Shown here in pieces: positions 1,476 to 43,182 of a stretch of DNA of 51,414 nucleotides (its first letter is position 1; every line of letters begins with the position of its first letter). The DNA lies in contig RKRP01000133.1 of NCBI GenBank assembly GCA_007571315.1, positions 1 through 51,414 of the forward strand, read 5' to 3'. Both the position numbers and the translations under genes were made by a program. A model generated the notes under the pieces. The model ran no database searches. It saw only the letters and a list, made by a program, of their open reading frames with translations, and was not told the origin of the DNA. Source of the stretch: Gammaproteobacteria bacterium (lineage in GTDB: Bacteria > Pseudomonadota > Gammaproteobacteria > Steroidobacterales > Foliamicaceae).

Positions 1476-1922
1476 TCAGCGCGGTTTTTTTATTGGGCGA
1501 ACCGATGTTGCAAGCCGCGCCACGCTCAGCAACATATCTTCTTCGTTGGTTATGCGAATGTCCCACACATGCACCACACTGCCGGTGCGTATGGGGCGTG
1601 CCGTGCCGTACACGTATCCCGAGCGCGCCGGGCGGAGGTGGCTTAGGTTGATTTCCAGGCCAAGCACCTGGTATTCCCCCGGAGGCGTGCAGAGATAGGA
1701 AGACCAGCTTCCCACCGATTCCGCGAGAACGGCCGAGGCGCCGCCGTGCAGCAGGCCAAAGGGCTGTTGGGTGCGATGATCCACCGGCATGCGCGCGCGC
1801 AGGAAATCGTTGCCTATCTCGACCACTTCCACGCCCAGATGCCCCAGCATCCGGTTCTCTTCCATGGCATTCAACTGTTCGGGGCGGCTGAAAGCCTTGG
1901 GGTGCCATATGCGCCCGGACAC
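1476..1922 (-). CDS. PaaI/YbdB-like hotdog-fold thioesterase
   Basis: GTG start at 1922 preceded by AGGAGG; MLGHLGVEVVEIGNDFLRARMPVDHRTQQPFGLLHGGASAVLAES motif; overlaps argH stop. Confidence 0.85.
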   Translation of the reverse strand: MSGRIWHPKAFSRPEQLNAMEENRMLGHLGVEVVEIGNDFLRARMPVDHRTQQPFGLLHGGASAVLAESVGSWSSYLCTPPGEYQVLGLEINLSHLRPARSGYVYGTARPIRTGSVVHVWDIRITNEEDMLLSVARLATSVRPIKKPR

Positions 1923-3112
1923 TATTCCTCCTGCTTCGCAACCTTGCGGTAGGCCTTGCGAAAACTGATGCCTTGCTCCGCAACCAGCCGGTTGGCTCGT
2001 TCGGCGGCCCGCAGGTCCGGCGCCGAGGCCAACTCCTCGCAGCGTTCGGGAACAAAGCGCAAGCCGCGCACTATACGGCATATTACGGCGCAACTCTCGC
2101 CGGTCAGATCGATGCCCCGGAACAACGGCGCCTTGATGCGCTGAAGGTCGCGCTGGTATCCGGAGGGCAGGGAAGCCGGCGCCCCCAGCACTTCCAGCAG
2201 GCAGCCCCGCACCGCAGCTCCTGCGCCTCGAACCAGCTCCAGCGCATCCGGATTACGCTTCTGGGGCATGATGGAAGAACCGGTGGTTACCTCATCCGCC
2301 AGACGAACCAGCGAGAATTCCCGCGTATAGAACAGCAGCAGGTCGCTGGCCAGACGACCGAGATCCTGCATCAGCAAGGCGCATTCGAACAGCAGCCCCG
2401 CCTCAGCTTTGCCGCGCGAGAGCTGCACCGAAGTGACCGGCGCCTGCACTTCGGCAAATCCCAGGCGGGCGCGCGTTTGTTCCCGGTCAATATTCAGCCC
2501 CGGCGCGCCGAAACCCGCGCCGCTGCCGAGCGGATTGCGGTCCATGCGCCGAACGGCTCCGGCCAAACCCGCGGCATCGTCGCGCAGCTCCCCGACAAAG
2601 CCGCATGCCCACAGTCCTACGCTGATGGGCATGGCGGGCTGCATGTGCGTATAGCCGGGCAAGGGCAAGCGGCCCTGGCGCGCGTTCAGGCCGTCCAGTT
2701 CATCCGCCACGGCGTTGGCGGCCCGCCGCAGGTCAAAAGCCGCATCCTTGAGATACAGCCGCAAGGCCGCCAGCACCTGATCGTTGCGGGAGCGTCCCAG
2801 ATGAACGCGCCCGCCGGCCTCGCCTATGCGCGCCGTCAGGCGCCGCTCCAGCGCGGTATGCGCATCTTCCTCTTCCAGGGAGATGGCCCATTCTCCGGCC
2901 GCGTGCTCTTTGCCCAACGCCTCCAGGCCGTCCGCGATTGCGGCCTTGTCCTGATCCGACAGATAGCCCGCCGCATGCAGCATCGCGGCGTGGGCAATCG
3001 AAGCCCGCACGTCGTACGCCACCAGCCGGGAATCCAGCCGATGATCCTCGCCCGCCGTATAGCGCAGCACGGTCTCGTCGAGCTGCCCGCCCTTGTCCCA
3101 CAGCCGGGTCAT
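1922..3112 (-). CDS. argH: argininosuccinate lyase
   Basis: GSSIMPQKRNPDALELVRG signature, MTRLWDKGG N-terminus. Confidence 0.95.
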   Translation of the reverse strand: MTRLWDKGGQLDETVLRYTAGEDHRLDSRLVAYDVRASIAHAAMLHAAGYLSDQDKAAIADGLEALGKEHAAGEWAISLEEEDAHTALERRLTARIGEAGGRVHLGRSRNDQVLAALRLYLKDAAFDLRRAANAVADELDGLNARQGRLPLPGYTHMQPAMPISVGLWACGFVGELRDDAAGLAGAVRRMDRNPLGSGAGFGAPGLNIDREQTRARLGFAEVQAPVTSVQLSRGKAEAGLLFECALLMQDLGRLASDLLLFYTREFSLVRLADEVTTGSSIMPQKRNPDALELVRGAGAAVRGCLLEVLGAPASLPSGYQRDLQRIKAPLFRGIDLTGESCAVICRIVRGLRFVPERCEELASAPDLRAAERANRLVAEQGISFRKAYRKVAKQEE

Positions 3113-4047
3113 TGCCTGCCGGCCTCCTGCTCGGCAGTCGATAGCGCGTCAATGCTGCGCACCACCAGGGTCCCGCAACCCTCGTTGGTGAACACCTCGC
3201 GCAGCAGAGCGTCCTGGGTGCTTCCGGAAACCAGGTGGACGCGCGGCACGCCCCCCTTGATCGCGGCTTCGATAGCCATTGCCTTGGGAAGCATGCCGTT
3301 GGCCAGCGCTCCCTCCGCGCGCAGTTTGCGCAAGCCGGCGAGGTCCAGGTAGGACAAAAGCGTGGAAGCATCCGAGCGGTCCGAAAGAATGCCTGGCGCG
3401 GCCATGGTGAGCACCAGTTTCTCGGCCTGCAGGGCTGTTGCCAACGCCGCGGCAACCGTATCGGCATTGATATTGAGAAGTCCGCCCCCGGAGTCCGCCG
3501 AGAGCGGACTTACGATGGGCAAAAAGCGTTTCTCCAAAAGCATTTTCAGCACTGCCGGGTCCACATTTTGGATATCGCCCACAAAGCCGAAATCCACTGG
3601 CTCCTCGCCTGCGCCTTCCACCTTTACCGGCGGGCGGCGGCGGGCCACAATCAGACCCGCGTCCACTCCGGACAGCCCAACGGCTGGAACGCCGCATGAG
3701 CGGCAGGCGGCGAGCAGCCGGGTATTGACCTCGCCGTTCAGCACACAGGCAGCCACCTTAAGGTCTTCGGCCCCGGTTACGCGGCGCCCGGCCACCATGC
3801 GCGCCTTGTGTTTCAGCCGGGTGGCCAATTCGGTTGATTGCGGGCCGCCCCCGTGCACGATTAGCACGCGAACTCCAAGGGCTTGCAGCACCGCCGCCTG
3901 TTCCACCAGCGCCTCAATGCGGCTGGCCCGGCTCAGCACCTCGCCGCCCAGCTTGACCACAAACACGCGGTCCCGGTAGAGGCGCAGGTACGGCGCGGCG
4001 GCGCGCAGCGCGCCGAATCCCGCGCCGCTTGGCCGCTTGCGGTTCAC
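3109..4047 (-). CDS. argB: acetylglutamate kinase-like (no GNAT domain)
   Basis: FVVKLGGEVLS...VLIVHGGGPQ...NINADTVAAALA; GTG start overlapping TGA of upstream gene. Confidence 0.9.
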   Translation of the reverse strand: MNRKRPSGAGFGALRAAAPYLRLYRDRVFVVKLGGEVLSRASRIEALVEQAAVLQALGVRVLIVHGGGPQSTELATRLKHKARMVAGRRVTGAEDLKVAACVLNGEVNTRLLAACRSCGVPAVGLSGVDAGLIVARRRPPVKVEGAGEEPVDFGFVGDIQNVDPAVLKMLLEKRFLPIVSPLSADSGGGLLNINADTVAAALATALQAEKLVLTMAAPGILSDRSDASTLLSYLDLAGLRKLRAEGALANGMLPKAMAIEAAIKGGVPRVHLVSGSTQDALLREVFTNEGCGTLVVRSIDALSTAEQEAGRQ

Positions 4048-5060
4048 AATCCCGGCCCCAGCATGGCGTAAAGAACAGCCATCTGCACCCACATTCGATT
4101 GCGGGCTTCCGCCACCACCACGCTGCGCGGGCCATCCAGCACCGCCTCGCTCACCACCACATTGCGGCGAACCGGCAGACAGTGCATAAACCGGCAGTTG
4201 GTTTCGGCGGGCTGGAACCAGGGCTCGTCCACGCACCAGTCCTCGTGCTGGTTGCGCAGCTGATAGTCGGAATGCTTGTCGCCGTAGTGGCGCGTCGAAC
4301 TCCAGGACTTGGCATAAACCACATGGGCGCCATCCAGCGCCTCGGACCGGTTATCCGTTTCCTGAACGGAACCGCCGAAGCGCTCGGCCAGCCGCCTGGC
4401 CTTGTTCATAACCACGTCCGGCAGCTCAAACCCGCCGGGCCGCAACACGGTTACGTCCATGCCGCGCATGGCTGCCATCTGGATCGTGGCCGCCGGAACC
4501 GCCAGCGGCAGCGCCAGCGGGTGATAGGCCCAACTGAGCACAAACTTGCCCGCGGACACGGGAATGTCCAGGTCGTCCATCGTCTTCCAGTCCGCCAGGC
4601 TCTGGCAAGGGTGGTTGATCGCCGATTCCATGTTGATCAGCGGTGTCGAGACCAGTTCCGCAAGGCCGCGATACTCCCGGTCCTCCAGATCCTCCGTCAG
4701 GTTGCGCCCCTCGGCGAAAGCGCGCAGGCCCAATGCATCGCCGTACGACGCGATTACCGGCACCGCCTCCCGAACATGCTCCGCAGCGGCGCCGTCCATG
4801 ACGATTCCCGGCCGGGTTTCCAGCCCGTGAATCGACATCTCCGGCGAGATTACGAAGGCGCCGCCGCCCAGCCGCGTCATGGAAGCCTGAAACGAGGCCA
4901 GAGTTCGAAGCGAGGGGTTTAGAAACAGCAGCGAAAGAACCTTGCCTTTGAGCGCCTCCGGTTCAGGATGCCGCTCAAGGCGGTTCGATAGCGCCAGCAG
5001 CGCCGATATTTCTTCGGTCGAAAAATCGGCCAGATCATCGAATCGTTTTATTTCACTCAT
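4044..5060 (-). CDS. argF': N-acetyl(or N-succinyl)ornithine carbamoyltransferase, ArgF' type
   Basis: FLNPSLRTLASFQ carbamoyl-P motif; HCLPVRRNVVVSE in place of the DCLPMHRG-type motif of ordinary OTCases; DWKTMDDL. Confidence 0.85.
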   Translation of the reverse strand: MSEIKRFDDLADFSTEEISALLALSNRLERHPEPEALKGKVLSLLFLNPSLRTLASFQASMTRLGGGAFVISPEMSIHGLETRPGIVMDGAAAEHVREAVPVIASYGDALGLRAFAEGRNLTEDLEDREYRGLAELVSTPLINMESAINHPCQSLADWKTMDDLDIPVSAGKFVLSWAYHPLALPLAVPAATIQMAAMRGMDVTVLRPGGFELPDVVMNKARRLAERFGGSVQETDNRSEALDGAHVVYAKSWSSTRHYGDKHSDYQLRNQHEDWCVDEPWFQPAETNCRFMHCLPVRRNVVVSEAVLDGPRSVVVAEARNRMWVQMAVLYAMLGPGL

Positions 5061-6261
5061 CGGACTGCTCCCGGTAAACGCCAGGTTGGTGAAGGGTAGC
5101 GGCCAGCGCGGCTGCTTCATTCTCGTGAAGGTTCAGCGGCGGCATAAGGCGCAGCCAGCCCGGCACCGCGCTGGCGCCCGTGAGGATGTTGGCGTCAAGC
5201 AGCCGGTCCCGCGCCGCGCTGGCGCTGCTGTTGCATTTAAGGCCCAGCAGCAAACCTCGGCCCTGTATCGCCTCGACCGGGCCCTGAAGGCAAGTAGCGC
5301 GTATTTGCCGCTCGCGCTCCGCCGCCCTTGCGGGAAGCTGCTCCTCATGCATCGCTTCCAGCACCGCTTCGACCGCGGCGCAAGCCAGCGGGCCGCCCCC
5401 AAAGGTGCTGCCGAGATCGCCCGTGCCGAGCTGCGCGGCGCAATCCTCGCGCATCAGCAGCGCTGCGCAAGGAAAGCCTGCCCCCAGGGACTTGGCAGTG
5501 GTGAGCATGTCGGGCGTCACGCCAGCGTGCGAAACAGCGAAGGGCAAGCCGCTGCGGCCCATTCCACATTGCACTTCGTCGGCAATGAAGAAGGCGCCGC
5601 AGGCATCGCAGGCGGCGCGCGCCGCAACCAGCACCTCGTTGGCTATGGGGTAAGCGCCCCCCAAACCCTGTATGGGCTCCAGTATGACGGCGGCCGTTTC
5701 CTGGTCGATCATTGCGGCAACGGCTGCGGAATCGTCACGCGGCGCAAACACCACGTCGAACGGCGTTTGGGGAAAGCCGTACCAACGGTACGCGCCCCAA
5801 CTGACCGCGGCGGCGGCGGCCGTGCGTCCATGAAATCCGTGCTGAAGAGCAACAACCCGGGAGCGCCCCGTAAGCTGGCAGGCCACACGCAGGGCATTCT
5901 CATTGGCTTCCGCTCCTGAATTCACGAAAAACACCCGGCTCAATCCGTCAGGAGCGAACTCGGCCAGTTTTTCAGCGGCCCGCGCCCGCACCCTCAGCGC
6001 CATTGCATTGCTGGCGAATAACAGCTCGCCGGCCTGCCGCCTGAGGGCTGCCAGCAGGCGTGGATGACCGTATCCCAGGGCGCAAACGGCGTGCCCTCCG
6101 TACAGGTCCAGCAGCCTGCGGCCGTCAGCGCAGATCAGGTAGGCGCCCTCGCCGGCAACCACCTCGAACGGGAACTGGGCATACACCTGCGCCAAATGGG
6201 CCGCTTCCAGGCGGCGCGCGTCGTCGAGAGCGTCTGGCGCCTGTTGCGCGTTCATGTCCAT
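5053..6261 (-). CDS. argD: acetylornithine aminotransferase family
   Basis: FVNSGAEANENALRVA, FIADEVQCGMGRSG, TTAKSLGAGFP PLP-lysine motif. Confidence 0.92.
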   Translation of the reverse strand: MDMNAQQAPDALDDARRLEAAHLAQVYAQFPFEVVAGEGAYLICADGRRLLDLYGGHAVCALGYGHPRLLAALRRQAGELLFASNAMALRVRARAAEKLAEFAPDGLSRVFFVNSGAEANENALRVACQLTGRSRVVALQHGFHGRTAAAAAVSWGAYRWYGFPQTPFDVVFAPRDDSAAVAAMIDQETAAVILEPIQGLGGAYPIANEVLVAARAACDACGAFFIADEVQCGMGRSGLPFAVSHAGVTPDMLTTAKSLGAGFPCAALLMREDCAAQLGTGDLGSTFGGGPLACAAVEAVLEAMHEEQLPARAAERERQIRATCLQGPVEAIQGRGLLLGLKCNSSASAARDRLLDANILTGASAVPGWLRLMPPLNLHENEAAALAATLHQPGVYREQSDE

Positions 6262-7301
6262 GCCGGCCCCGGCGCGGTCAAACCGGCCGTTTCATCGAAT
6301 CCGTACAGGCGGTTGGCCCATTGCACCGCTCCGCCGGCCGCGCCCTTCACCAGGTTGTCCAGCACCACGAAAACCGCCACCGAGCCGCCATCGACGGCGA
6401 TTGAAATATGCGCATGATTGCTGCCCACCACATTCTTGAGTCGTGGAGGCGTGTCCGTTAAATGCACAAACGGCGCATCGCCGTAACTCTGCTCGAAGGC
6501 GTTTTTGACCTGCCGCTCGCTTACCGAGGGTTTGAGGCCGGCCTGCATCGTAAGGTGGATTCCGCGCGCGAACGGCCCCGAATGCGGAACGAACCGCAAT
6601 TGCGGACGTTGCCCGCTTACCGCCTCGCAGATCTCTTCCACCTCCGGCGCGTGACGGTGCCGCAGCGGCCGGTAAGCAAACAGGTTGGAATGGCGGAGAG
6701 GGTGATGAGTGGTTGGCAGCGGCTGCTTGCCTGCCCCGGTGCTGCCGGTTACGCCGCTGGCGAAAAGCAGGGTGTTGGCGAGCTCGAAGCGCATCAGGGG
6801 CACGGACGCGAGCAGCAAGGCGCTGGCGAAGCACCCGGGGTGCCCCGCATGCGGGGTGTCCGCTTGCGCCCGATGCTCCGGCAGGGCGCAGCAAAACTTC
6901 GGCAACAGCTCCGGCGCGCCGTGCGCGGTCCCGTAAACCTGCTCATAGGCTTGGGCGGTGGCGTAGCGGAAGTCGGCCGAAACATCCACGATCCGAACTT
7001 CGGAGCCGCGCTTTCCGGCGAGTTTCAGGACATGGGCGACCAGCCCTGCGCTGGCCCCGTGCGGCGCGCAGGAAAAAACGGCGCAAGGCTGGCGCAGCGC
7101 TTCCTCCAGTTCGGCCAGGGAACAAAAACGAGAATCGGGCCAGAGGCCGGTGAGATTGGGAAATACGGATTCCACCGTGGCGCCCGCATTGCTCTGCGAT
7201 ACTGCCGCCGCCACCCGGAACTCCGGATGGGCGGCAAGAATGCGCAGGAGTTCGCCGGCCACATAGCCCGAAGCTCCCAGCACTACAGCGGGAATGCTCA
7301 T
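6252..7301 (-). CDS. argC: N-acetyl-gamma-glutamyl-phosphate reductase
   Basis: VVLGASGYVAGELLRIL; HPGCFAS active-site Cys; ATGA overlap with upstream gene. Confidence 0.93.
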   Translation of the reverse strand: MSIPAVVLGASGYVAGELLRILAAHPEFRVAAAVSQSNAGATVESVFPNLTGLWPDSRFCSLAELEEALRQPCAVFSCAPHGASAGLVAHVLKLAGKRGSEVRIVDVSADFRYATAQAYEQVYGTAHGAPELLPKFCCALPEHRAQADTPHAGHPGCFASALLLASVPLMRFELANTLLFASGVTGSTGAGKQPLPTTHHPLRHSNLFAYRPLRHRHAPEVEEICEAVSGQRPQLRFVPHSGPFARGIHLTMQAGLKPSVSERQVKNAFEQSYGDAPFVHLTDTPPRLKNVVGSNHAHISIAVDGGSVAVFVVLDNLVKGAAGGAVQWANRLYGFDETAGLTAPGPAWT

Positions 7302-8365
7302 TGTTGCTTCAGCCCCAGTCTGCGGACCACGAACTTGCCCAGGTCCGCGCTGTGGGTGATAGCGTTGTAGCCGGGCGCGCCAACACGTTGGCGCAGGATG
7401 TCGAGCCCTACCTGGTTGTCGGTGGCGGGGCCGGTAACGGCGGCCACCTCGATTCCGAATTGCTCCTTCAGGAGGACGGTGCCGCCCCAGGCGGCAACGG
7501 GGTCGCTGGCGCACAGCAGCAGGCAGCTAATGGAGGAGCGTATGTTTTCATCCGCCAGGATAGCCTCCACGCCGTAGGCGCCGAGTATGCCGTCGCCCAG
7601 CTCGAAAACAATCGCGTCGGGCCCAGCGGCCGCCATTCGCCGCAGCATGGCCCGCACCAGGCGGGGCGCATTGCGGGGCGCGGTGCTGACTACCCCGAAA
7701 TCAGTGAAAATCGCGGTATTGCGCGCGCCCGCGTCCTCCATGGCCAGAATATCGCGGCGCAGCGCCACTCCGGTGGCCTTGAAAGCGTCCACCACATAGC
7801 CTTCATGCCGCAGGCGGCCGACGATGGCGCAGGCGGCGGCCGTCTTTCCGGAATTCATGGTGGTGCCGGCCAGAGCCACCACCGGCGCGCCGCCCAGGTC
7901 CAGGTTGCCGGAATCCTCCGGCGGCAGCGCTTCACCGCCTACCCGCGCAGGTATCCCAACGCGCTCGCCCAGATAGGGGAACTCCAGCACTACCCCCAGC
8001 ACGCGGGCATCGAAGGGCGGCCCCATGGTGGCGTTTCCCGAATCGCACACACCCAGCACGCCGCCTATGTTGAGCAACTGCAGCACATCGCCGGGCCGGA
8101 CCGATTCCGGCACGTGCCCCGCGTAGCCGAACAGGGCTTTCCTGTGGCCCAGGGCGCCTACCACAACGTCTCCATTGCGCACGCGAGCCATGCGGCCGCT
8201 GGCCAGCTCCAGCCGGTTGTAGGACGACTTGTCGTTGAGCATCTCCACCGCAACGAGCACGCCTTCCTCGCTGGGAATCTCGTTGCCCACCCGGATTTCG
8301 CGCTCAAGCTCCAGGCCGGAAGCAACCGAGGCAAGCTTATCGACGATCACGCTACGCATGACCAC
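7298..8365 (-). CDS. unknown P-loop NTPase-like protein embedded in the arginine operon (possibly DUF1611/MobB-like)
   Basis: VVALAGTTMNSGKTAAACAIVGRLRHEGY Walker A; coding overlaps with argG and argC. Confidence 0.75.
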   Translation of the reverse strand: MVMRSVIVDKLASVASGLELEREIRVGNEIPSEEGVLVAVEMLNDKSSYNRLELASGRMARVRNGDVVVGALGHRKALFGYAGHVPESVRPGDVLQLLNIGGVLGVCDSGNATMGPPFDARVLGVVLEFPYLGERVGIPARVGGEALPPEDSGNLDLGGAPVVALAGTTMNSGKTAAACAIVGRLRHEGYVVDAFKATGVALRRDILAMEDAGARNTAIFTDFGVVSTAPRNAPRLVRAMLRRMAAAGPDAIVFELGDGILGAYGVEAILADENIRSSISCLLLCASDPVAAWGGTVLLKEQFGIEVAAVTGPATDNQVGLDILRQRVGAPGYNAITHSADLGKFVVRRLGLKQQ

Positions 8366-9578
8366 CGCCTTTTTTTGCTGAAGCCGCTACCCGGCTGTGC
8401 AGCAGGCCGGGCAGCGACAGCACCCGGGCTGCGCCGAGCGCGTCGCGCGGGGTCCATTCTCCGGCGGATTCGCCGTACACGCCGCGGGTGGCCGCAAGCA
8501 GGGAGTGGTCCGATTCCACCCCCTTGATCCAGACGCTTCCCGGCCGCAGCGTCAGGTGGACACGGCCGCTCACAAATTGCTGAGAACTGTCGAAGAAGGC
8601 CTCGATGTTGCGGCACACCGGATCAAGCTGTTTGCCCTCGTGCACCAGGTCGCCATACACAGCCGCCAGCGTGTCCTTCACGCGCAGCTGAGCCGCTCCC
8701 AATGTGAGCTTCTCCAGTTCGCGGTGGGCGGTAAGCAGCACCTCCGCGGCCGGCGCCTCATAGGCCACGCGGCCCTTGGCGCCGAGGATGGTGTCGCCTA
8801 AGTGGATGCCCCTGCCGATGCCGAACCGCGCGCCAGCCGCCTCCACCGCCTCGATCAATTCCACCGGCGGCAGCCGCCGGCCATCCCAGCGCGCTGGCAC
8901 GCCAGCCTTGAACTCCAGTTCATGCTGCTCTTCCGCAAGCGGTTTCTCCAGCGCCCCTGCGGACAGCACCCATGCGGATTCGGGTATCGAATCCGCCGAG
9001 GTGAGGGTTTCCCTGCCGCCAATGGTTGCGCCCCACAGGCCGCGATTGATCGAATAATCGCCGCCCGCTGGAATTTCCGGAGCGTTGCGCTGCCTTAGGT
9101 ATTCCAGTTGCGTTTTGCGCTGAAGCGACTCGTCGCGGACCGGCGCCAGCACCGTAATTTCCGGCGCCAGGGCGCGCATGGCCATCTCGAACCGGAACTG
9201 ATCGTTGCCTGCCGCGGTGCAGCCGTGCGCCACCGTATCGCTGCCCAGTTCGCTGGCGGCGCGGGCCAGAAAGCGCGCTTGTATGCCGCGCTCGGCGCCC
9301 ACGCACAACGGATAGCTCTGGCCTCGGCGCACATTGCCCGCGATCAGATGCCGGATCACCTGGTCGAAGAACTGCGGGCGCGCTTCCACCAGCAGGTGGC
9401 GCCGGGCGCCCAGCGCCAGGGCGCGCTGCTCCAGCTCGGCGGCATCCTCGGAACTGATGCCGCCGGTGTTGACTGTGAGGGTCACTACCGGCCGCTGGTG
9501 CTTCTCGCTGAGCCAGGGCACGCAAAACGAAGTGTCCAGTCCGCCGGAAAAAGCCAGCACGATGGGTGAATTGCTCAT
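8352..9578 (-). CDS. argG: argininosuccinate synthase
   Basis: VLAFSGGLDTSFCVPWL PP-loop; GCTAAGNDQFRFE; NRGLWGATIGG. Confidence 0.94.
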   Translation of the reverse strand: MSNSPIVLAFSGGLDTSFCVPWLSEKHQRPVVTLTVNTGGISSEDAAELEQRALALGARRHLLVEARPQFFDQVIRHLIAGNVRRGQSYPLCVGAERGIQARFLARAASELGSDTVAHGCTAAGNDQFRFEMAMRALAPEITVLAPVRDESLQRKTQLEYLRQRNAPEIPAGGDYSINRGLWGATIGGRETLTSADSIPESAWVLSAGALEKPLAEEQHELEFKAGVPARWDGRRLPPVELIEAVEAAGARFGIGRGIHLGDTILGAKGRVAYEAPAAEVLLTAHRELEKLTLGAAQLRVKDTLAAVYGDLVHEGKQLDPVCRNIEAFFDSSQQFVSGRVHLTLRPGSVWIKGVESDHSLLAATRGVYGESAGEWTPRDALGAARVLSLPGLLHSRVAASAKKGGGHA

Positions 9579-36166: not shown

Positions 36167-36736
36167 ATGCGCAAGATTGCGTTTTTACAAGTATTGGCGT
36201 TGCGGCGGGCGGTGTTGCTTGCCGGTCTGCTGGCGGCGGCTCCGGCGGGCGCGCAGGTCAACATTGATGCTTATCGGGATTACTTCCTGGTGGGCCGCTT
36301 CGGCGAGGTTTGCACCATGTGCGAAGTAGTTGTGCTGTGCGAGGAGGGAAGCGCGCCGCCCGAGGCCCGGGGTGTTCCTTCCGGCGGCAATTTCACCCTC
36401 TATCATCTCCAAACCCGCACCTTCTGGTCGCAGGTTTCCACAATCTGGGAATGGTTCATTTCCAATTTCACGCCCGCCGACCTGGCCCAGCGCGGCCACA
36501 CCCGCCCGGTGCATGTTTATTCCGTAACCGGCGGCGACTGGTCGGCCAGGGAGGTGATTGAGGGCCGGCTGGCGCTTAATCCGGGAGTGCTGGAGTTCGG
36601 GGCCTGGCGCATTGATCGCGTCAGCCGCGCCTGGCTGCGCGCCGACACTGGCGAGGCTGCGGGCTACTGCGCCCGGCTGCCCTTATGGGATGCGCTGGAG
36701 AGCATCCAGGCCAACGCGCCGGGTAACGAGCAGTGA
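36167..36736 (+). CDS. secreted protein of unknown function
   Basis: Signal peptide ending APAGAQ; overlaps the GTG start of the DoxX-like gene. Confidence 0.65.
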   Translation: MRKIAFLQVLALRRAVLLAGLLAAAPAGAQVNIDAYRDYFLVGRFGEVCTMCEVVVLCEEGSAPPEARGVPSGGNFTLYHLQTRTFWSQVSTIWEWFISNFTPADLAQRGHTRPVHVYSVTGGDWSAREVIEGRLALNPGVLEFGAWRIDRVSRAWLRADTGEAAGYCARLPLWDALESIQANAPGNEQ

Positions 36737-37251
36737 GCCGGGCGATTCAGGAATTCCGGCAGGTATGGAAGCGGGGCTGGATAAAGGCCCACCCGGTTCG
36801 CTTCGCCGGCATGCAGCTGCACCTGCTCTTCAGGACGCTGTTCGCGATCTTCTGGCTGGCCGCGGGCATCAACAAGATCGTCAAGGACTGGCTCACCAGC
36901 GACATTCTCAAGGAAATCTTTCTGGAACGCTTGACGGAAATGCCGCCGGATGCCTTTGCGTCGCTTTTCCTGCAATGGTTCGCGCTGCCGCTGTACGGCC
37001 TGGTGGCCTGGGTGATTACCTGGGGCGAGATTTATTCGGCGCTGGGCTTGCTGCTGGGATTCACAACCCGCATTGCCGCCGCCGTCAGCCTGTTTATCCT
37101 GTGCGGCTTTGCCGCGGGCGGCTACTACGACGCTTCGCTGATTCCGTTCTTCATTCTCACCGCCGTGTTTCTATGGTGGCCGTCCGGCCTATGGCTGGGA
37201 ATCGACCGGCCGCTGGCCAAGCGCTACCCCGCAAGCCGCTGGTTCCGCTGA
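36733..37251 (+). CDS. DoxX-like membrane protein
   Basis: LFAIFWLAAGINKI...WGEIYSALGLLLGFTTRIAAAVSLFILCGF; 4-TM pattern. Confidence 0.7.
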   Translation: MSRAIQEFRQVWKRGWIKAHPVRFAGMQLHLLFRTLFAIFWLAAGINKIVKDWLTSDILKEIFLERLTEMPPDAFASLFLQWFALPLYGLVAWVITWGEIYSALGLLLGFTTRIAAAVSLFILCGFAAGGYYDASLIPFFILTAVFLWWPSGLWLGIDRPLAKRYPASRWFR

Positions 37252-37800: not shown

Positions 37801-38835
37801 TCATGCAACATCAAGGCTGTTGAGGAGGCGGCGAATGGGCGCGGGCAAGCCCAGGGGCTGGTTTCCGGTGTGCCAGAGCCAGGTGTCCGCTTCCCGAAGC
37901 TTGCGGCTGCTGCCGGCGAGCAGGAACTCAACCGGCCGGATTTCCAGTGCGAAGTGACTGAAGCCGTGCCGTATTGGCGGCAGTTCGCCGATGAATTTTG
38001 CGGAAACACCCAGGACTCGCGCGCGCCAGGCCGCGGGATCTTCGTTGTCGTTCAGGACAGGCAGGCTCCATAACCCCGCCCATATGCCGACCGGCGGGCG
38101 GCGCTCAAGCAGCACCGCCCCGTCTGAACGTCTAACCAGGGCCATGGAGCAGCATTTCAGCGGTCGCCGTCTGGCCTTGCGCGGCGCGGGGATTGTGGAT
38201 GTCTTACCCAGTAGCCGCGCCCGGCAGTTGGCACCCAGGGGGCAGGAATCGCAGCGCGGCCGGCGCTGGCGGCACACGGCGGCGCCCAGGTCCATGATCG
38301 CCTGCGTGTAGTCCTGCGTTCTCTCCGCAGGCGTGTTGGATTCGGCCAGCTCCCAAAGCGTCCTGTTGACGGCGGATTTGCCGGGCCAACCCTCCACCGC
38401 GTAGAACCGGGCGAGAACGCGCCGCGCGTTTCCATCGAGGATTGCGTGCCGCTGTCCATGCGCCTGGGCGAGAATCGCTCCGGCCGTGGAACGCCCGATG
38501 CCCGGCAGCGCCACGAGCTGGTCGACTTCCTTCGGCAGCCTGCCACCGTAACGTTGAACAACGATCTTGGCGGCCTGCATCAGGTTGTGGGCGCGGGAGT
38601 AATAGCCCAGCCCGGCCCAAATGGCCAGCACCGAGTTCTCGCTGGCTTCCGCCAGCGCCTCAATGCGCGGAAAGGCTTGCACGAACCGCTCGTAATAGGG
38701 TTTGACGGTTTCCACCCGGGTTTGTTGCAGCATGATTTCAGCAACCCATACGCGGTACGGGTTGCGTTGGCGCTGCCAGGGAAGGTCCTTGCGCCCGTGC
38801 TTATCCCACCAGGCCAGGAGTTGGGGGGCGATCAT
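37801..38835 (-). CDS. mutY: A/G-specific adenine glycosylase (start 38835 or 38898)
   Basis: KDLPWQRQRNPYRVWVAEIMLQQTRVETV; LPGIGRSTAGAILA; FeS cysteines CRQRRPRCDSCPLGANC. Confidence 0.95.
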   Translation of the reverse strand: MIAPQLLAWWDKHGRKDLPWQRQRNPYRVWVAEIMLQQTRVETVKPYYERFVQAFPRIEALAEASENSVLAIWAGLGYYSRAHNLMQAAKIVVQRYGGRLPKEVDQLVALPGIGRSTAGAILAQAHGQRHAILDGNARRVLARFYAVEGWPGKSAVNRTLWELAESNTPAERTQDYTQAIMDLGAAVCRQRRPRCDSCPLGANCRARLLGKTSTIPAPRKARRRPLKCCSMALVRRSDGAVLLERRPPVGIWAGLWSLPVLNDNEDPAAWRARVLGVSAKFIGELPPIRHGFSHFALEIRPVEFLLAGSSRKLREADTWLWHTGNQPLGLPAPIRRLLNSLDVA

Positions 38836-40951
38836 CCGCCAAATTGTAGGCGGCTGCCCCGCCATTGCCTGATGACAGGCGCAGCACCTGATCGGCATGG
38901 CGCAGTATGGCCGGACGGTGGGCGGCGCACACTACGGTTACGTCGAGATTCTTGAGCATCTGCACCACCCGCTCCTCGGTTGCGGGGTCCAGGTGGCTGG
39001 TGGCCTCGTCGAGTATCAGCGCGCGCGGGCGGCGATACAGCGCTCTCGCCAGCAGGATTCTCTGCGCCTGGCCGCCCGACAGATTGGAACCCATGTCGCC
39101 AATCTGGCTGGCCATGCCCATGGGGAATTGTCGAATTTCCGCGTCCATGGCCGCCAGGCGAGCAACTTCCTCAATCAGTTCGGCATCCGGCGCCGGGTCG
39201 AAGAAACTGATATTCTCGGCGATGCTGCCTCGGAACAGCACGTCGCCCTGCAGCACAAGGCCCAGTTGCCGGCGATACTCGCGGCGCTGAAGCCTTTCCA
39301 CTTCCGTTCCGTCTGCCAGAAGCCTTCCCTCCGTAGGTGTTTCCAGGCCCGCCAGAAGTTTGAGAAAAGTGCTCTTGCCGCAGCCGGATGGCCCTGTCAG
39401 CACCACCAGCTGGCCCGGTTCAATACGGCAGGAAAATTTGCGCAGCACGAATCCCTCGTTGCCGCTGTAGGCAAATCCCATTCCCTGCGCCTCGAACGCG
39501 CCATCAAGCCGGCCAACCGGCAAGCCATCCTCCGGTTCGGCCTCGTGCTCCACGATATCCCCCAGCCGCTCGGCATGCAGCCGCAGCATGTAAGCCTGTT
39601 GAAACAGCGCAATAAGCGCACTGAGGGCCGCGCTGAACCGGCCGCGCAGCGACATGAAGGCAAACAGCGCGCCGAGCGTGATCTGACCATTAAACAGCGC
39701 CAGCACCCCAACGCCCAGAAACGCGATCTGCTCGGCTTCCCCAAGCGCGCTCAGCCCGGCGCCGGACCACATGCCTATGCGCGCGCTGCGCACATTCAGG
39801 TTGAGCTTATCGACCAGGTGCGTTTGCCAAACCGTGAGGCGCTCGCTCTCGCCGGCCAGCGCCTTTACCGTTTCGCTTCCGCGAAGCGATTCCAGCATCG
39901 CTGAACTCTGCTTCGCCCCCGCCACCAGCCCGTCCCGCGACAACCGTCTCTGCGCGGGAAGAACGCTCCACACCAACCCGGCGCGAAGCGCCAGCCCGGC
40001 CAGGCTGATCATCATCAGGACCGGGCTGTAGATCAGCATCACCACGCCTGCAAGAGTTACCTTGAGCAGATTGATAATGCCTGTGACCACCGAGCCTGTC
40101 GCGAACTGGATGATGGGCGCCAGCGATTGCATGCGCGAGACTACATCGCCCACATGCCGCTCCCGGAAGAAGCGCGCCGGCAGGCTGAACAGCCGCCGGG
40201 TTAGATTGCGGGAGGTTTGCAGGGAAATCGAGGTGGATAGCCAAATTCCAATCCAGCCCTGGAGCAGTTGCAGCGGGATTGTTACCGCCGCCAGCAGCGC
40301 CATGGCGATCAGCATGGAGCGCAGCAATTCGGAATCCTGGGATGTGGTTACTTCGTCGATCAGGATTTGCGAAAGTATGGGTGGCGCCAGGCTGAGTATC
40401 TGCATCGCCAGCGCAATCAGGGTGAGGCCGGACAGCGTGCGCGCGAGACCGTCGAATGAACGGGCTATGGACTTGAGCGGCAGCGCGCCACGCAAGTCGG
40501 AGCGCCTGAAATTCGCGTGCGGGGCGAGTTCCAGCGCCACGCCCGTAAAGCGTTCGTCGAGTTGCGCAACGCGCCACCAGCGGCGCTCGCCCGCAGGGTC
40601 GAGGATCAGCGCGCGCTGCTTGCGGACTTTCTCCAGCACAACATAGTGGTCCAGATTCCAGTGCAGGATGCAGGGAACCTTGAGCTGCGCAAACTCTTCC
40701 AGTTCCAGCCTGAGCGGCCGTCCGCTCAGGCCCAGTTTTTCGGCGGCATCCATCAGCGCTTGCAACGTGTGTCCGCGTCCCGCTCCGCCGGCGCGGGCGC
40801 GGGTTGTGGTCAAGTTCATGCGCAGTCCGTGAAAGTCGGCGATCATCGCCAGACAGGCCAGCCCGCACTCGGACTGCTGGTGCTGGGGAATGTGCCGCAG
40901 CCTCCTGGGGCGGCCGATGGCGGCATCAAACGCCTGCTTGAACGTCGGCAA
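38801..40951 (-). CDS. peptidase (C39)-containing ABC exporter, CvaB/RaxB-like (PCAT)
   Basis: C39 triad in HIPQHQQSECGLACLAMIADFHG, WNLDHYVVL, ILDPAG; Walker A GPSGCGKST, LSGGQAQR, Walker B ALILDEAT. Confidence 0.93.
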   Translation of the reverse strand: MPTFKQAFDAAIGRPRRLRHIPQHQQSECGLACLAMIADFHGLRMNLTTTRARAGGAGRGHTLQALMDAAEKLGLSGRPLRLELEEFAQLKVPCILHWNLDHYVVLEKVRKQRALILDPAGERRWWRVAQLDERFTGVALELAPHANFRRSDLRGALPLKSIARSFDGLARTLSGLTLIALAMQILSLAPPILSQILIDEVTTSQDSELLRSMLIAMALLAAVTIPLQLLQGWIGIWLSTSISLQTSRNLTRRLFSLPARFFRERHVGDVVSRMQSLAPIIQFATGSVVTGIINLLKVTLAGVVMLIYSPVLMMISLAGLALRAGLVWSVLPAQRRLSRDGLVAGAKQSSAMLESLRGSETVKALAGESERLTVWQTHLVDKLNLNVRSARIGMWSGAGLSALGEAEQIAFLGVGVLALFNGQITLGALFAFMSLRGRFSAALSALIALFQQAYMLRLHAERLGDIVEHEAEPEDGLPVGRLDGAFEAQGMGFAYSGNEGFVLRKFSCRIEPGQLVVLTGPSGCGKSTFLKLLAGLETPTEGRLLADGTEVERLQRREYRRQLGLVLQGDVLFRGSIAENISFFDPAPDAELIEEVARLAAMDAEIRQFPMGMASQIGDMGSNLSGGQAQRILLARALYRRPRALILDEATSHLDPATEERVVQMLKNLDVTVVCAAHRPAILRHADQVLRLSSGNGGAAAYNLADDRPPTPGLVG

Positions 40952-42251
40952 GCGCAGGCTCCTCCGCGTTTATCAAGGCTTCGCCGGCGCCGCGAATGAG
41001 CGGATCCAAAAGCCAGCGTATGAGTGTGCGCCGGGTTTCAATGATGGTGGCGTCCACCCCCAGCCCCGGGCGCAGCGGCCAGCTCCGGCCCTTGGCTTGC
41101 ATGTGCTGCCGTTCAAGTCTCACGCGCGCCTCGTAGGCGGGAGCAAGCACATTCGGAACCAGGCGAATGGCATGCGCCTCAAGCGGGCTGGAAGTCATTT
41201 CCGTAACCGTGCCCTTCAATACGCCAAACTGGCGCGACGGAAAGGCCGGAAGTTTCAGCACCGCCTCCTGTCCGGCCTCGGCTCGCCCGCCGGCCGCTGA
41301 CGAAAGGTAAAGCCGGGCTTCCATTTCCGCGCCGGGCGGGTGAATGGTAGCTACCGCATCGCCAATGTTGACCGGCTTGCCGGCGCTCGCCAGCACGTCG
41401 GCAAGTTGTCCTCGCATGGGCGCGACGATTGCGCGGCGGGATAACCCGTCCAGCTCCACGGCGCGTTCCGCCAAACGCTCCGATTCAATCTCCAGGCTCA
41501 AATCCAGCGCCTCGAAGGACTGGCGCTCAGCAATCATTCCCTGCGAGAGGCGATCGACAGCGGCCTCGGTTTCAATTCTCTGGGAACGCAGTTGATCCAG
41601 CAGCGCCATGGCTTGCAGCCTCCGCAGTTCCGAAGGCTCCACATCGCGCCTCGCCGCGTGTCCTTGAGACGCCAGCGCCTCCAGCCGCTTGTAGCCGGCA
41701 TCCGCCAGTTCAACCTGGCGGGCCGCGTTTTGAACCCGCGCCTTGAGCAAATCCAGCGTGGATTTGAGTGCCGCCTGCTCAAGACGCATGGAGCGCATTC
41801 TTGCGTCGAAGGCGTTTCGTTCCCTGTGCCGGCGCTGCTGCAGCAATTGCCGCTGTTGCGCCGCCGACCCCGACCGGGTCTCGTAACTGCCGATCCCGTC
41901 GGCAAGAGCGCGGTCCACGGCCAGCGTCATCAACGCGCTGCCGGCCTCCACCGTGTCGCCCGGCTTTACCAGCACTTCCTCGATCACGCCGCTTTGCTCG
42001 GCGGGTATTGTGGTAAGACCGCCCACGGGCAGCAGCACGCCGGGGGCATGCAGCCGGCTTGGCACCTGGACCACGAAGGCCAGGGCAATCAGCGCGGCAA
42101 TGCAAGCGCATGCAATCCACACTGCAAGAGGGGTGGAGGCCGGCCCGGCCAGCAGCACCTTCCCAAGGAAGCGATTCCGCTGACTTGTCAGGGCGTTCTC
42201 GCGGAACAAACCGGGGTCGTTTGGAGAACGCCTTGTTGGATGGTTGCCCAC
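40926..42251 (-). CDS. HlyD/CvaA-like membrane fusion protein
   Basis: Single N-terminal TM; TIPAEQSGVIEEVLVKPGDTVEAGSALMTL lipoyl-like; coiled coil; overlaps the PCAT gene. Confidence 0.9.
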   Translation of the reverse strand: MGNHPTRRSPNDPGLFRENALTSQRNRFLGKVLLAGPASTPLAVWIACACIAALIALAFVVQVPSRLHAPGVLLPVGGLTTIPAEQSGVIEEVLVKPGDTVEAGSALMTLAVDRALADGIGSYETRSGSAAQQRQLLQQRRHRERNAFDARMRSMRLEQAALKSTLDLLKARVQNAARQVELADAGYKRLEALASQGHAARRDVEPSELRRLQAMALLDQLRSQRIETEAAVDRLSQGMIAERQSFEALDLSLEIESERLAERAVELDGLSRRAIVAPMRGQLADVLASAGKPVNIGDAVATIHPPGAEMEARLYLSSAAGGRAEAGQEAVLKLPAFPSRQFGVLKGTVTEMTSSPLEAHAIRLVPNVLAPAYEARVRLERQHMQAKGRSWPLRPGLGVDATIIETRRTLIRWLLDPLIRGAGEALINAEEPALADVQAGV

Positions 42252-42285
42252 CGGACCGGCCTCTATGCTTTCTGACTGTTTGACG

Positions 42286-42507
42286 TCACAGCACCTCCGG
42301 CCACTCGTCGCTGCATGGCGGCAGCCAATGCGACGGAACCGGTTTGGACGAATCCTCCATCCCTGTTTCCTGCTGCCTCTCCGGCACCAGGATCCAACGG
42401 TTGGGAGGCTCCTTCCAGCGCGGAATTTCGTGCCGCATAAGGGTGCGAAATTCCTCTGGATGCCCGCCCGCAGGCAAGCGAATTTCCCGCAACGTCAACT
42501 TTCTCAT
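42286..42507 (-). CDS. double-glycine leader peptide 2, Pro/Trp-rich core (putative microcin-like precursor)
   Basis: MRKLTLREIRLPAGG leader; GGAG RBS; directly upstream of the MFP/PCAT genes. Confidence 0.7.
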   Translation of the reverse strand: MRKLTLREIRLPAGGHPEEFRTLMRHEIPRWKEPPNRWILVPERQQETGMEDSSKPVPSHWLPPCSDEWPEVL

Positions 42508-42570
42508 GTCAATCTCCGTTTGCTGAGCGCCAACGCTCACTCGCCTGCCGCATCTGGAGCGGCAGCGCGG

Positions 42571-42933
42571 CTAGTCGTTGTCAGTAACGACTACCAGCTG
42601 GTACGCGGGAAGCGGGGCGTAATCGTCCGTTATCCCTACAGTCCCTTGCACCACAACGCCACCACTGCCGCCGCCGCTATCCGATTCTTCGCCATCTGAT
42701 TTCTCTTTTTCCTCCATGGCGCATAAGGGCCGCGCAACAACTTCAGCCACGAGCGCGCCCGCTGAAGCGCCAACAATCGCCCCGGGAACCGCGCCCATGC
42801 CTCCTGCTGCGGTGCCGACTATCGCGCCAGTGCCGGCTCCTATGACTATGGCCGCCGCCTTGACGTTTTGCACGCATTCGGATTCGTGTCCGCCAGCAAC
42901 GGCGGCGCATTCGCTATCGAGTAGTACTCGCAT
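42571..42933 (-). CDS. double-glycine leader peptide 1, Gly/Ala-rich core (putative class II microcin precursor)
   Basis: MRVLLDSECAAVAGG leader; AGGAGGT RBS; GxxxG-rich hydrophobic core GAGTGAIVGTAAGGMGAVPGAIVGASAGALV. Confidence 0.8.
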   Translation of the reverse strand: MRVLLDSECAAVAGGHESECVQNVKAAAIVIGAGTGAIVGTAAGGMGAVPGAIVGASAGALVAEVVARPLCAMEEKEKSDGEESDSGGGSGGVVVQGTVGITDDYAPLPAYQLVVVTDND

Positions 42934-43108
42934 GATTTACCTCCTTGTAAGGATTGAATTGCGCGGCGCAACCCCTGCGCCGCTTCGATGAGCACAATGG
43001 ACTTTCCCCGAGATGAAGGAAACCGGAAAATTGCTCGCGTACCGCGAATATTTCTATCCCGCGAGCTTATCCGCCTAACGCGGCACTAATACGGCTATTG
43101 CATGAGCA

Positions 43109-43182
43109 TGGAGCGGACGATGGGAATCGAACCCACATCATCAGCTTGGGAAGCTGAGGTTCTACCTTTGAACTACGCCCGC
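43109..43182 (-). tRNA. tRNA-Gly (CCC)
   Basis: Reverse strand GCGGGCGTAGTTCAAAGGTAGAACCTCAGCTTCCCAAGCTGATGATGTGGGTTCGATTCCCATCGTCCGCTCCA. Confidence 0.95.

What the first reader, a model, noticed from the sequence alone, without database searches (positions are those of the whole stretch)
38801..42933. Uncharacterised microcin-V-like export cluster with two double-glycine precursor peptides
In one minus-strand operon: peptide 1 (MRVLLDSECAAVAGG|HESEC...), peptide 2 (MRKLTLREIRLPAGG|HPEEF...), a HlyD/CvaA-like MFP and a CvaB-like C39 ABC exporter with an apparently intact Cys/His/Asp triad. Both leaders are 15 aa ending in GG and resemble the colicin V leader (MRTLTLNELDSVSGG, from memory). 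Peptide 1 core has a Gly/Ala GxxxG helix as in class II microcins, two Cys, and an unusual acidic Ser/Gly-rich tail (KSDGEESDSGGGSGG). No immunity gene is recognisable and mutY follows directly. This is my best candidate for an undescribed system.
Basis: partly seen in the sequence, partly recalled or inferred. Interest (0 to 1): 0.85.

Follow-up and report, generated by a model that had tools for sequence, protein, structure and literature searches.

The report
Polymorphic exported peptide operon lacking immunity
Bacteria of one genus, several of them from marine sponges, all carry a working machine that cuts and exports two small proteins; one of these changes drastically between close relatives by gene swapping, as weapons or recognition molecules do, yet no self-protection gene lies beside it.

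Summary
Pep1 (42571-42933, minus strand), pep2 (42286-42507), a HlyD-type MFP and a C39-ABC exporter form one operon between tRNA-Gly and mutY. They are the only two ORFs in 51 kb with an L(-12)xxxE(-8)x5GG leader (0.15 expected). All nine genomes held for the genus keep the same order, an intact C39 Cys/His/Asp triad and both leaders. Pep2 was not found outside the genus.
New here: pep1 is a hypervariable cassette. Genomes 90-95% identical across the locus fall to 32-50% identity over the pep1 core and recover in pep2. Two species share an identical 920-bp tract around pep1 (about 92% identity overall). The pep1 tree rejects the exporter tree. The leader, glycine zippers and two core cysteines persist; the C-terminal tails are exchanged.
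Related exporters elsewhere in the order have a small membrane ORF (immunity candidate) directly after the precursor. This genus has none; pep2 sits in that slot but is soluble and does not vary with pep1.
Best reading: a Cdz/class II microcin-like secreted membrane-active peptide, diversified by allele exchange, immunity unlinked or dispensable. Export and cleavage are well supported by sequence; antibacterial action is inferred. A new variant of a known kind.

The parts
43109..43182 (-). tRNA-Gly(CCC) directly upstream of the operon; conserved flank in all nine genomes and one end of the exchanged tract
   Evidence: ARAGORN; alignments
42963..42983 (-). conserved hairpin (inverted repeat) about 30 nt upstream of the pep1 start codon; likely 5' regulatory element
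   Evidence: 9 pairs kept in all 8 distinct sequences, one compensatory change (C-G to U-A) and three G-U changes; only occurrence of the pattern in the genome
42940..42946 (-). strong ribosome-binding site AAGGAGG of pep1
   Evidence: sequence, conserved 9/9
42889..42933 (-). pep1 leader, 15 aa, MRVLLDSECAAVAGG; nearly invariant in the genus
   Evidence: pN/pS 0.33
42721..42888 (-). pep1 core: two glycine-zipper helices bounded by invariant Cys20 and Cys71; hypervariable
   Evidence: helices 19-42 and 48-79 in a low-confidence model; DUF6861/Gly-zipper matches
42571..42720 (-). pep1 polar/acidic C-terminal tail (with stop); exchanged between lineages
42286..42507 (-). pep2, 73 aa, 15-aa double-glycine leader, soluble Trp/Pro-rich core; genus-restricted
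   Evidence: no Pfam, NCBIfam or PDB match
40926..42251 (-). HlyD/CvaA-type membrane fusion protein (441 aa, GTG start)
   Evidence: HlyD_3 1e-13, TIGR01843 3e-39 below cut-off; 59-82% identity in 8 relatives
38801..40951 (-). C39-peptidase ABC exporter (716 aa, TTG start)
40514..40897 (-). C39 peptidase domain with intact Cys/His/Asp
   Evidence: Peptidase_C39 6.8e-33, residues 19-146; triad invariant 9/9
37801..38835 (-). mutY (from the internal ATG; the longest ORF starts at 38898); overlaps the exporter gene and is probably co-transcribed; not part of the peptide system
   Evidence: sequence

Best explanation
The operon makes two precursors whose 15-aa double-glycine leaders are cut by the C39 domain of the dedicated ABC exporter. 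The mature chains leave through exporter, MFP and a TolC encoded elsewhere in the genome. Mature pep1 is a glycine-zipper helical hairpin, probably closed by a Cys20-Cys71 disulfide, with a polar tail. It most likely inserts into membranes of competing, related bacteria, as Cdz proteins and class II microcins do, with the tail choosing the target. Its core and tail are replaced as an allelic cassette by homologous recombination through conserved flanks (tRNA-Gly and leader on one side, pep2 on the other), so that close species carry different versions. Pep2 is a co-exported constant partner, not an allele-matched immunity protein. Immunity is either unlinked or not needed because the target receptor is absent or altered in the producer. 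Shown by sequence: operon, conservation, intact catalytic residues, leader match, cassette exchange, missing adjacent membrane ORF. Inferred: cleavage, export, disulfide, membrane insertion, killing, tail as targeting part.
For: Same gene order and both peptides in 9/9 genus genomes. Triad invariant. Only two consensus leaders in 51 kb, both next to the exporter. TolC homologue over its cut-off at C109. Pep1 meets the published Cdz-like criteria for length, G[G/A/S] leader and zippers bounded by Pro, and has a polar though long tail (PMC5380434). Cassette behaviour: identity drops from 90-95% to 32-50% over the pep1 core only; identical 920-bp tract between two species that are 91.9% identical overall; exporter topology rejected by pep1 data, AU p about 1e-43, and 0.0005 after removing one of the identical pair. 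pN/pS is 0.33 for the leader, 0.68 for the zipper, 0.76 for the tail and 0.19 for the exporter.
Against: No immunity gene in the operon and no conserved small membrane ORF nearby, although related exporters in the order do have one. The system is universal in the genus at one fixed chromosomal site, whereas bacteriocins are usually patchy. pN/pS stays below 1 and synonymous sites in the tail are near saturation, so selection for change is not proven, only replacement. No killing data exist. The structure model is of low confidence. Pep2 has Pro at -4 in several members, an unusual residue at the position thought to confer specificity.
Confidence: 0.52

Rival explanations
1. Pep1 is an exported, surface-retained protein with a variable tail that is recognised by something else (sponge host receptors, phages or kin), and diversifies as an antigen or identity tag rather than as a toxin; no immunity gene is needed.
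For: No immunity ORF and no co-varying neighbour; pep2 is nearly constant while pep1 is unrelated in L058/L064; universal in the genus rather than patchy; four of the genomes carry sample codes that fit sponge metagenomes (PMC8163846); CdzC, the nearest described relative in design, stays on the producer's outer membrane (PMC5380434).
Against: Glycine-zipper double-glycine peptides with C39 exporters of known function are mostly bacteriocins; related systems in the order look like toxin plus immunity.
Confidence: 0.2
2. A classical class II microcin with its immunity gene at another chromosomal site.
For: Architecture fits (PCAT, MFP, TolC elsewhere, GG leader); PMC9746304 notes that immunity proteins are hard to recognise.
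Against: In described class II microcins immunity lies near the microcin gene; here allele exchange moved pep1 without a neighbouring gene.
Confidence: 0.15
3. Peptide signalling: pep2 (constant) or pep1 (pherotype-like) is a cell-cell signal.
For: Double-glycine peptides can be signals; pep2 is short, soluble and conserved in the genus.
Against: No sensor kinase or regulator is adjacent; pep1 is long and zipper-bearing; no co-varying receptor nearby.
Confidence: 0.08
4. Self-acting peptides, such as the stationary-phase autolysis peptides of Neisseria (Nap).
For: Nap peptides also have GG motifs and a C39 peptidase and do not kill competitors (PMC11798529).
Against: Autolysis gives no obvious reason for allele exchange; Nap peptides are short and cationic, pep1 is long with an acidic tail; the nap island carries an immunity-like gene (napI).
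Confidence: 0.05

Closest known systems
[quoted passage not shown] PMC5380434)
   Same: Type I exporter plus MFP without its own TolC; two small precursors with leaders; glycine zippers bounded by Pro; polar C-terminus; the published search found 239 Cdz-like proteins, particularly in gammaproteobacteria.
   Different: CdzI (3 TM) immunity is essential there and absent here; both Cdz proteins have zippers, pep2 has none; pep1 has a long tail and a conserved Cys pair; here the system is genus-universal and allele-swapped.
Class II microcins, colicin V/MccV type (PMC9746304, PMC10233263)
   Same: 15-aa GG leader, PCAT with catalytic triad, MFP, TolC elsewhere, zipper core followed by a polar tail; Pfam MccV touches one allele (E=0.002).
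   Different: No adjacent immunity gene; the tail is allele-swapped; a second unrelated precursor; sequence similarity is weak.
NHLM/NHLP bacteriocin exporters (TIGR03796)
   Same: Best NCBIfam model for the exporter (467 bits).
   Different: Well below its cut-off (853 bits); no nitrile-hydratase-type leader; other C39 exporters in the genus lie beside a second, roughly 970-990 aa ABC protein.
PCAT1 and ComA (solved structures 4RY2, 8HF4)
   Same: Full-length similarity including the C39 domain; same leader consensus.
   Different: Gram-positive, no MFP or TolC; different cargo.
Neisseria Nap peptides (PMC11798529)
   Same: Several GG peptides with a C39 peptidase in a Gram-negative.
   Different: FapF channel and short cationic peptides; act on the producer; immunity-like napI present.

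Membership tests
Class II microcin system | Precursor with N-terminal double-glycine signal | tested here: met
   Leader pattern found only in these two ORFs; invariant GG in 9/9
Class II microcin system | C39 PCAT with Cys/His/Asp triad | tested here: met
Class II microcin system | Membrane fusion protein in the same cluster | tested here: met
   HlyD_3; TIGR01843
Class II microcin system | TolC in the genome | tested here: met
   TIGR01844 over its cut-off at G000:C109
Class II microcin system | Cognate immunity protein near the microcin | tested here: not met
   No conserved small membrane ORF within -4.4/+1.2 kb; pep2 does not vary with pep1
Class II microcin system | Sequence match to known microcin cores | tested here: inconclusive
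   Pfam MccV 1/9 (E=0.002), Bacteriocin_IIc 2/9, neither over the curated cut-off for the window allele
Class II microcin system | Antibacterial activity | not testable with these tools
   Needs expression and killing assays
Cdz-like protein | 60-151 residues, leader ending G[G/A/S] | tested here: met
   Pep1 115-133 aa, AVAGG leader, 9/9
Cdz-like protein | One or two glycine zippers flanked, not interrupted, by Pro or charge | tested here: met
   Two zipper segments separated by Pro50 and flanked by charged residues, read from the sequence
Cdz-like protein | Short charged or polar C-terminus | tested here: inconclusive
   Charged/polar but long (49 aa) in the window allele
Cdz-like system | Small TM immunity protein in the cluster | tested here: not met
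   No TM immunity ORF found
Cdz-like system | Contact-dependent killing | not testable with these tools
   Needs co-culture assays
NHLM bacteriocin exporter (TIGR03796) | Score over the curated cut-off | tested here: not met
   467 bits against 853

The most novel reading that the evidence does not exclude
A genus-wide, immunity-free polymorphic secreted protein of sponge-associated symbionts: one constant exporter, leader and partner peptide (pep2) serve an exchangeable pep1 cassette whose variants mark or defend strains towards host, phage or kin, i.e. a recognition or display system built from microcin parts rather than a toxin-immunity pair.
Probability: 0.2. Interest if true: 0.8.

Novelty: new variant of a known kind. 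Interest (0 to 1): 0.55.

Why it matters
Gram-negative double-glycine peptides are known mostly from Enterobacteriaceae and a few others. Here an uncultured genus, several members of which come from sponge metagenomes, has fixed such a system at one chromosomal site and exchanges only the peptide, without an immunity gene. That makes an open question testable: how can a polymorphic secreted membrane-active peptide be swapped between producers without its immunity gene? It also gives eight distinct natural alleles as antimicrobial or recognition candidates.

Tried and rejected
(1) Pep2 as the immunity protein: rejected as allele-matched immunity. It sits in the slot where order relatives have a 2-TM ORF, but it has a conserved GG leader, no membrane segment, and stays nearly the same while pep1 is unrelated. 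(2) Hidden immunity ORF in another frame or close by: none conserved and hydrophobic. (3) Exporter as NHLM: fails the cut-off. (4) Homologues of pep2 outside the genus: none convincing in 287 further order genomes; the remaining hits are weak and partial, several in frames with stops. (5) Pep1 homologues elsewhere in the order: only zipper-region hits inside larger frames; no second copy in the own genome. (6) AlphaFold models too uncertain (pLDDT 45 and 64) to search by fold. (7) Conserved hairpins between pep1 and pep2: strong in some alleles, absent in others, not a conserved feature. (8) PADLOC: no match for either peptide.

Full report
Observation. On the minus strand between tRNA-Gly(CCC) (43109-43182) and mutY lie pep1 (42571-42933), pep2 (42286-42507), a HlyD-type MFP (40926-42251) and a C39-peptidase ABC exporter (38801-40951). 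Pep1 has a strong ribosome-binding site. The MFP and exporter genes overlap, and the exporter gene overlaps mutY. Scanning every ATG ORF of at most 200 aa in the window for the published PCAT leader pattern L(-12)xxxE(-8)x5GG gives exactly these two peptides; Markov-simulated windows give 0.15 on average (consensus from PMC6959990).

Conservation. All eight other genomes held for the genus have the same order: tRNA-Gly, pep1, pep2, MFP, exporter, mutY. The exporter is 77-88% identical and keeps Gln, Cys, His and Asp of the C39 active site without exception. COS, RHO and CAR fit Coscinoderma, Rhopaloeides and Carteriospongia of a reef sponge study (PMC8163846), so a sponge-associated genus is inferred; the window's own source is not stated. 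Pep2 was not found with confidence in 287 other genomes of the order. A TolC homologue lies elsewhere in the genome.

The peptides. Pep1 alleles share a nearly invariant leader (window: MRVLLDSECAAVAGG), two core cysteines (20 and 71 in the window allele) and two glycine-zipper segments around a turn. A low-confidence model gives helices 19-42 and 48-79 and a disordered tail. Eight of nine alleles touch Pfam DUF6861 (about 1e-6; over the zipper in the window allele), two Bacteriocin_IIc, one MccV. Pep2 is soluble, with invariant F20 R21 T22, H26, I28 P29 R30 and a C-terminal HWLP-like motif, and no family match.

Pep1 is an exchangeable cassette. In genome pairs that are 90-95% identical over most of the locus (L058/L064, L063/L064), identity falls to 32-60% over about 400 bp of pep1 core and tail and rises again in pep2 (to 89-94% for L058/L064, 74-78% for L063/L064). 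L058 and L059, 91.9% identical overall, share an unbroken 920-bp identical tract from the tRNA-Gly region through pep1 into pep2. In the exporter tree L063 and L064 are sisters; in the pep1 tree L063 groups with L062/L065 and L064 with L060/L061, and the tails show the same grouping. The pep1 data reject the exporter topology (AU p about 1e-43; 0.0005 without L059). pN/pS is 0.33 for the leader, 0.68 for the zipper, 0.76 for the tail, 0.66 for the pep2 core, 0.39 for the MFP and 0.19 for the exporter. This shows replacement under relaxed or diversifying selection; it does not prove positive selection. Caveats: nine genomes, most of them metagenome-assembled as far as can be told; an assembly chimera could mimic one exchange but not the whole pattern. 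Recombination is also seen elsewhere in the locus (a 396-bp identical stretch of L059/L065 near the exporter end), but only pep1 diverges this far.

No immunity gene. No small ORF with a membrane segment is conserved within -4.4/+1.2 kb. In other families of the order, related exporters stand beside double-glycine peptides, several with glycine zippers, and in at least two groups a small 2-TM-like ORF follows the precursor directly (L069/L070, 69 aa; L073/L074, about 96-124 aa). Pep2 occupies that place here. Because pep2 is nearly unchanged between genomes whose pep1 cores are unrelated (L058/L064), it cannot be an allele-specific antidote.

Mechanism. Export and leader removal follow from the family and the intact active site. 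Membrane insertion by the zipper hairpin and target choice by the tail are inferred from Cdz proteins (PMC5380434) and class II microcins (PMC9746304). The main rival is a displayed recognition protein. A hairpin 30 nt before pep1 (42963-42983) is conserved with one compensatory change and occurs once in the genome, pointing to regulation of pep1.

Verdict. By the published five-part definition one part, immunity, was tested and not met. I file it as a new variant of glycine-zipper double-glycine secretion systems.

Noticed in passing
window 42963-42983: Conserved 8-9 bp hairpin GCGGCGCA..TGCGCCGC upstream of pep1, with one compensatory change; single copy in the genome.
   Followed up: partly
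L069/L070 and L073/L074 (small TM ORFs directly after the GG precursor, upstream of the exporter): Other families of the order have C39 exporters with MRELSAAELLLVSGG- or MREL...VAGG-type precursors followed by small 2-TM-like ORFs: uncharacterised toxin-immunity candidates.
   Followed up: partly
G000:C183:6619-8646 (L066): Second C39-type ABC exporter in the same genome (36% identity), next to a short hydrophobic ORF that may be a truncated MFP, with no recognisable GG peptide nearby.
   Followed up: no
G001:C35, G003:C13, G006:C48, G007:C9 and others: Several genus members also carry a C39 ABC next to a roughly 970-990 aa ABC protein, resembling an NHLM exporter pair.
   Followed up: no
window 37801-38898: mutY overlaps the 3' end of the exporter gene in the window and follows it in the genus, so a DNA-repair gene is probably co-transcribed with the peptide exporter.
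   Followed up: partly
window 36733-37251 (+): 172-aa multi-TM protein of DoxX-like appearance near the operon, no Pfam match at 1e-6; not adjacent and not shown to co-vary with pep1.
   Followed up: no
window 1922-9578 (-): Arginine-biosynthesis-type cluster (lyase, amino acid kinase, aminotransferase, semialdehyde dehydrogenase, argininosuccinate synthase).
   Followed up: no
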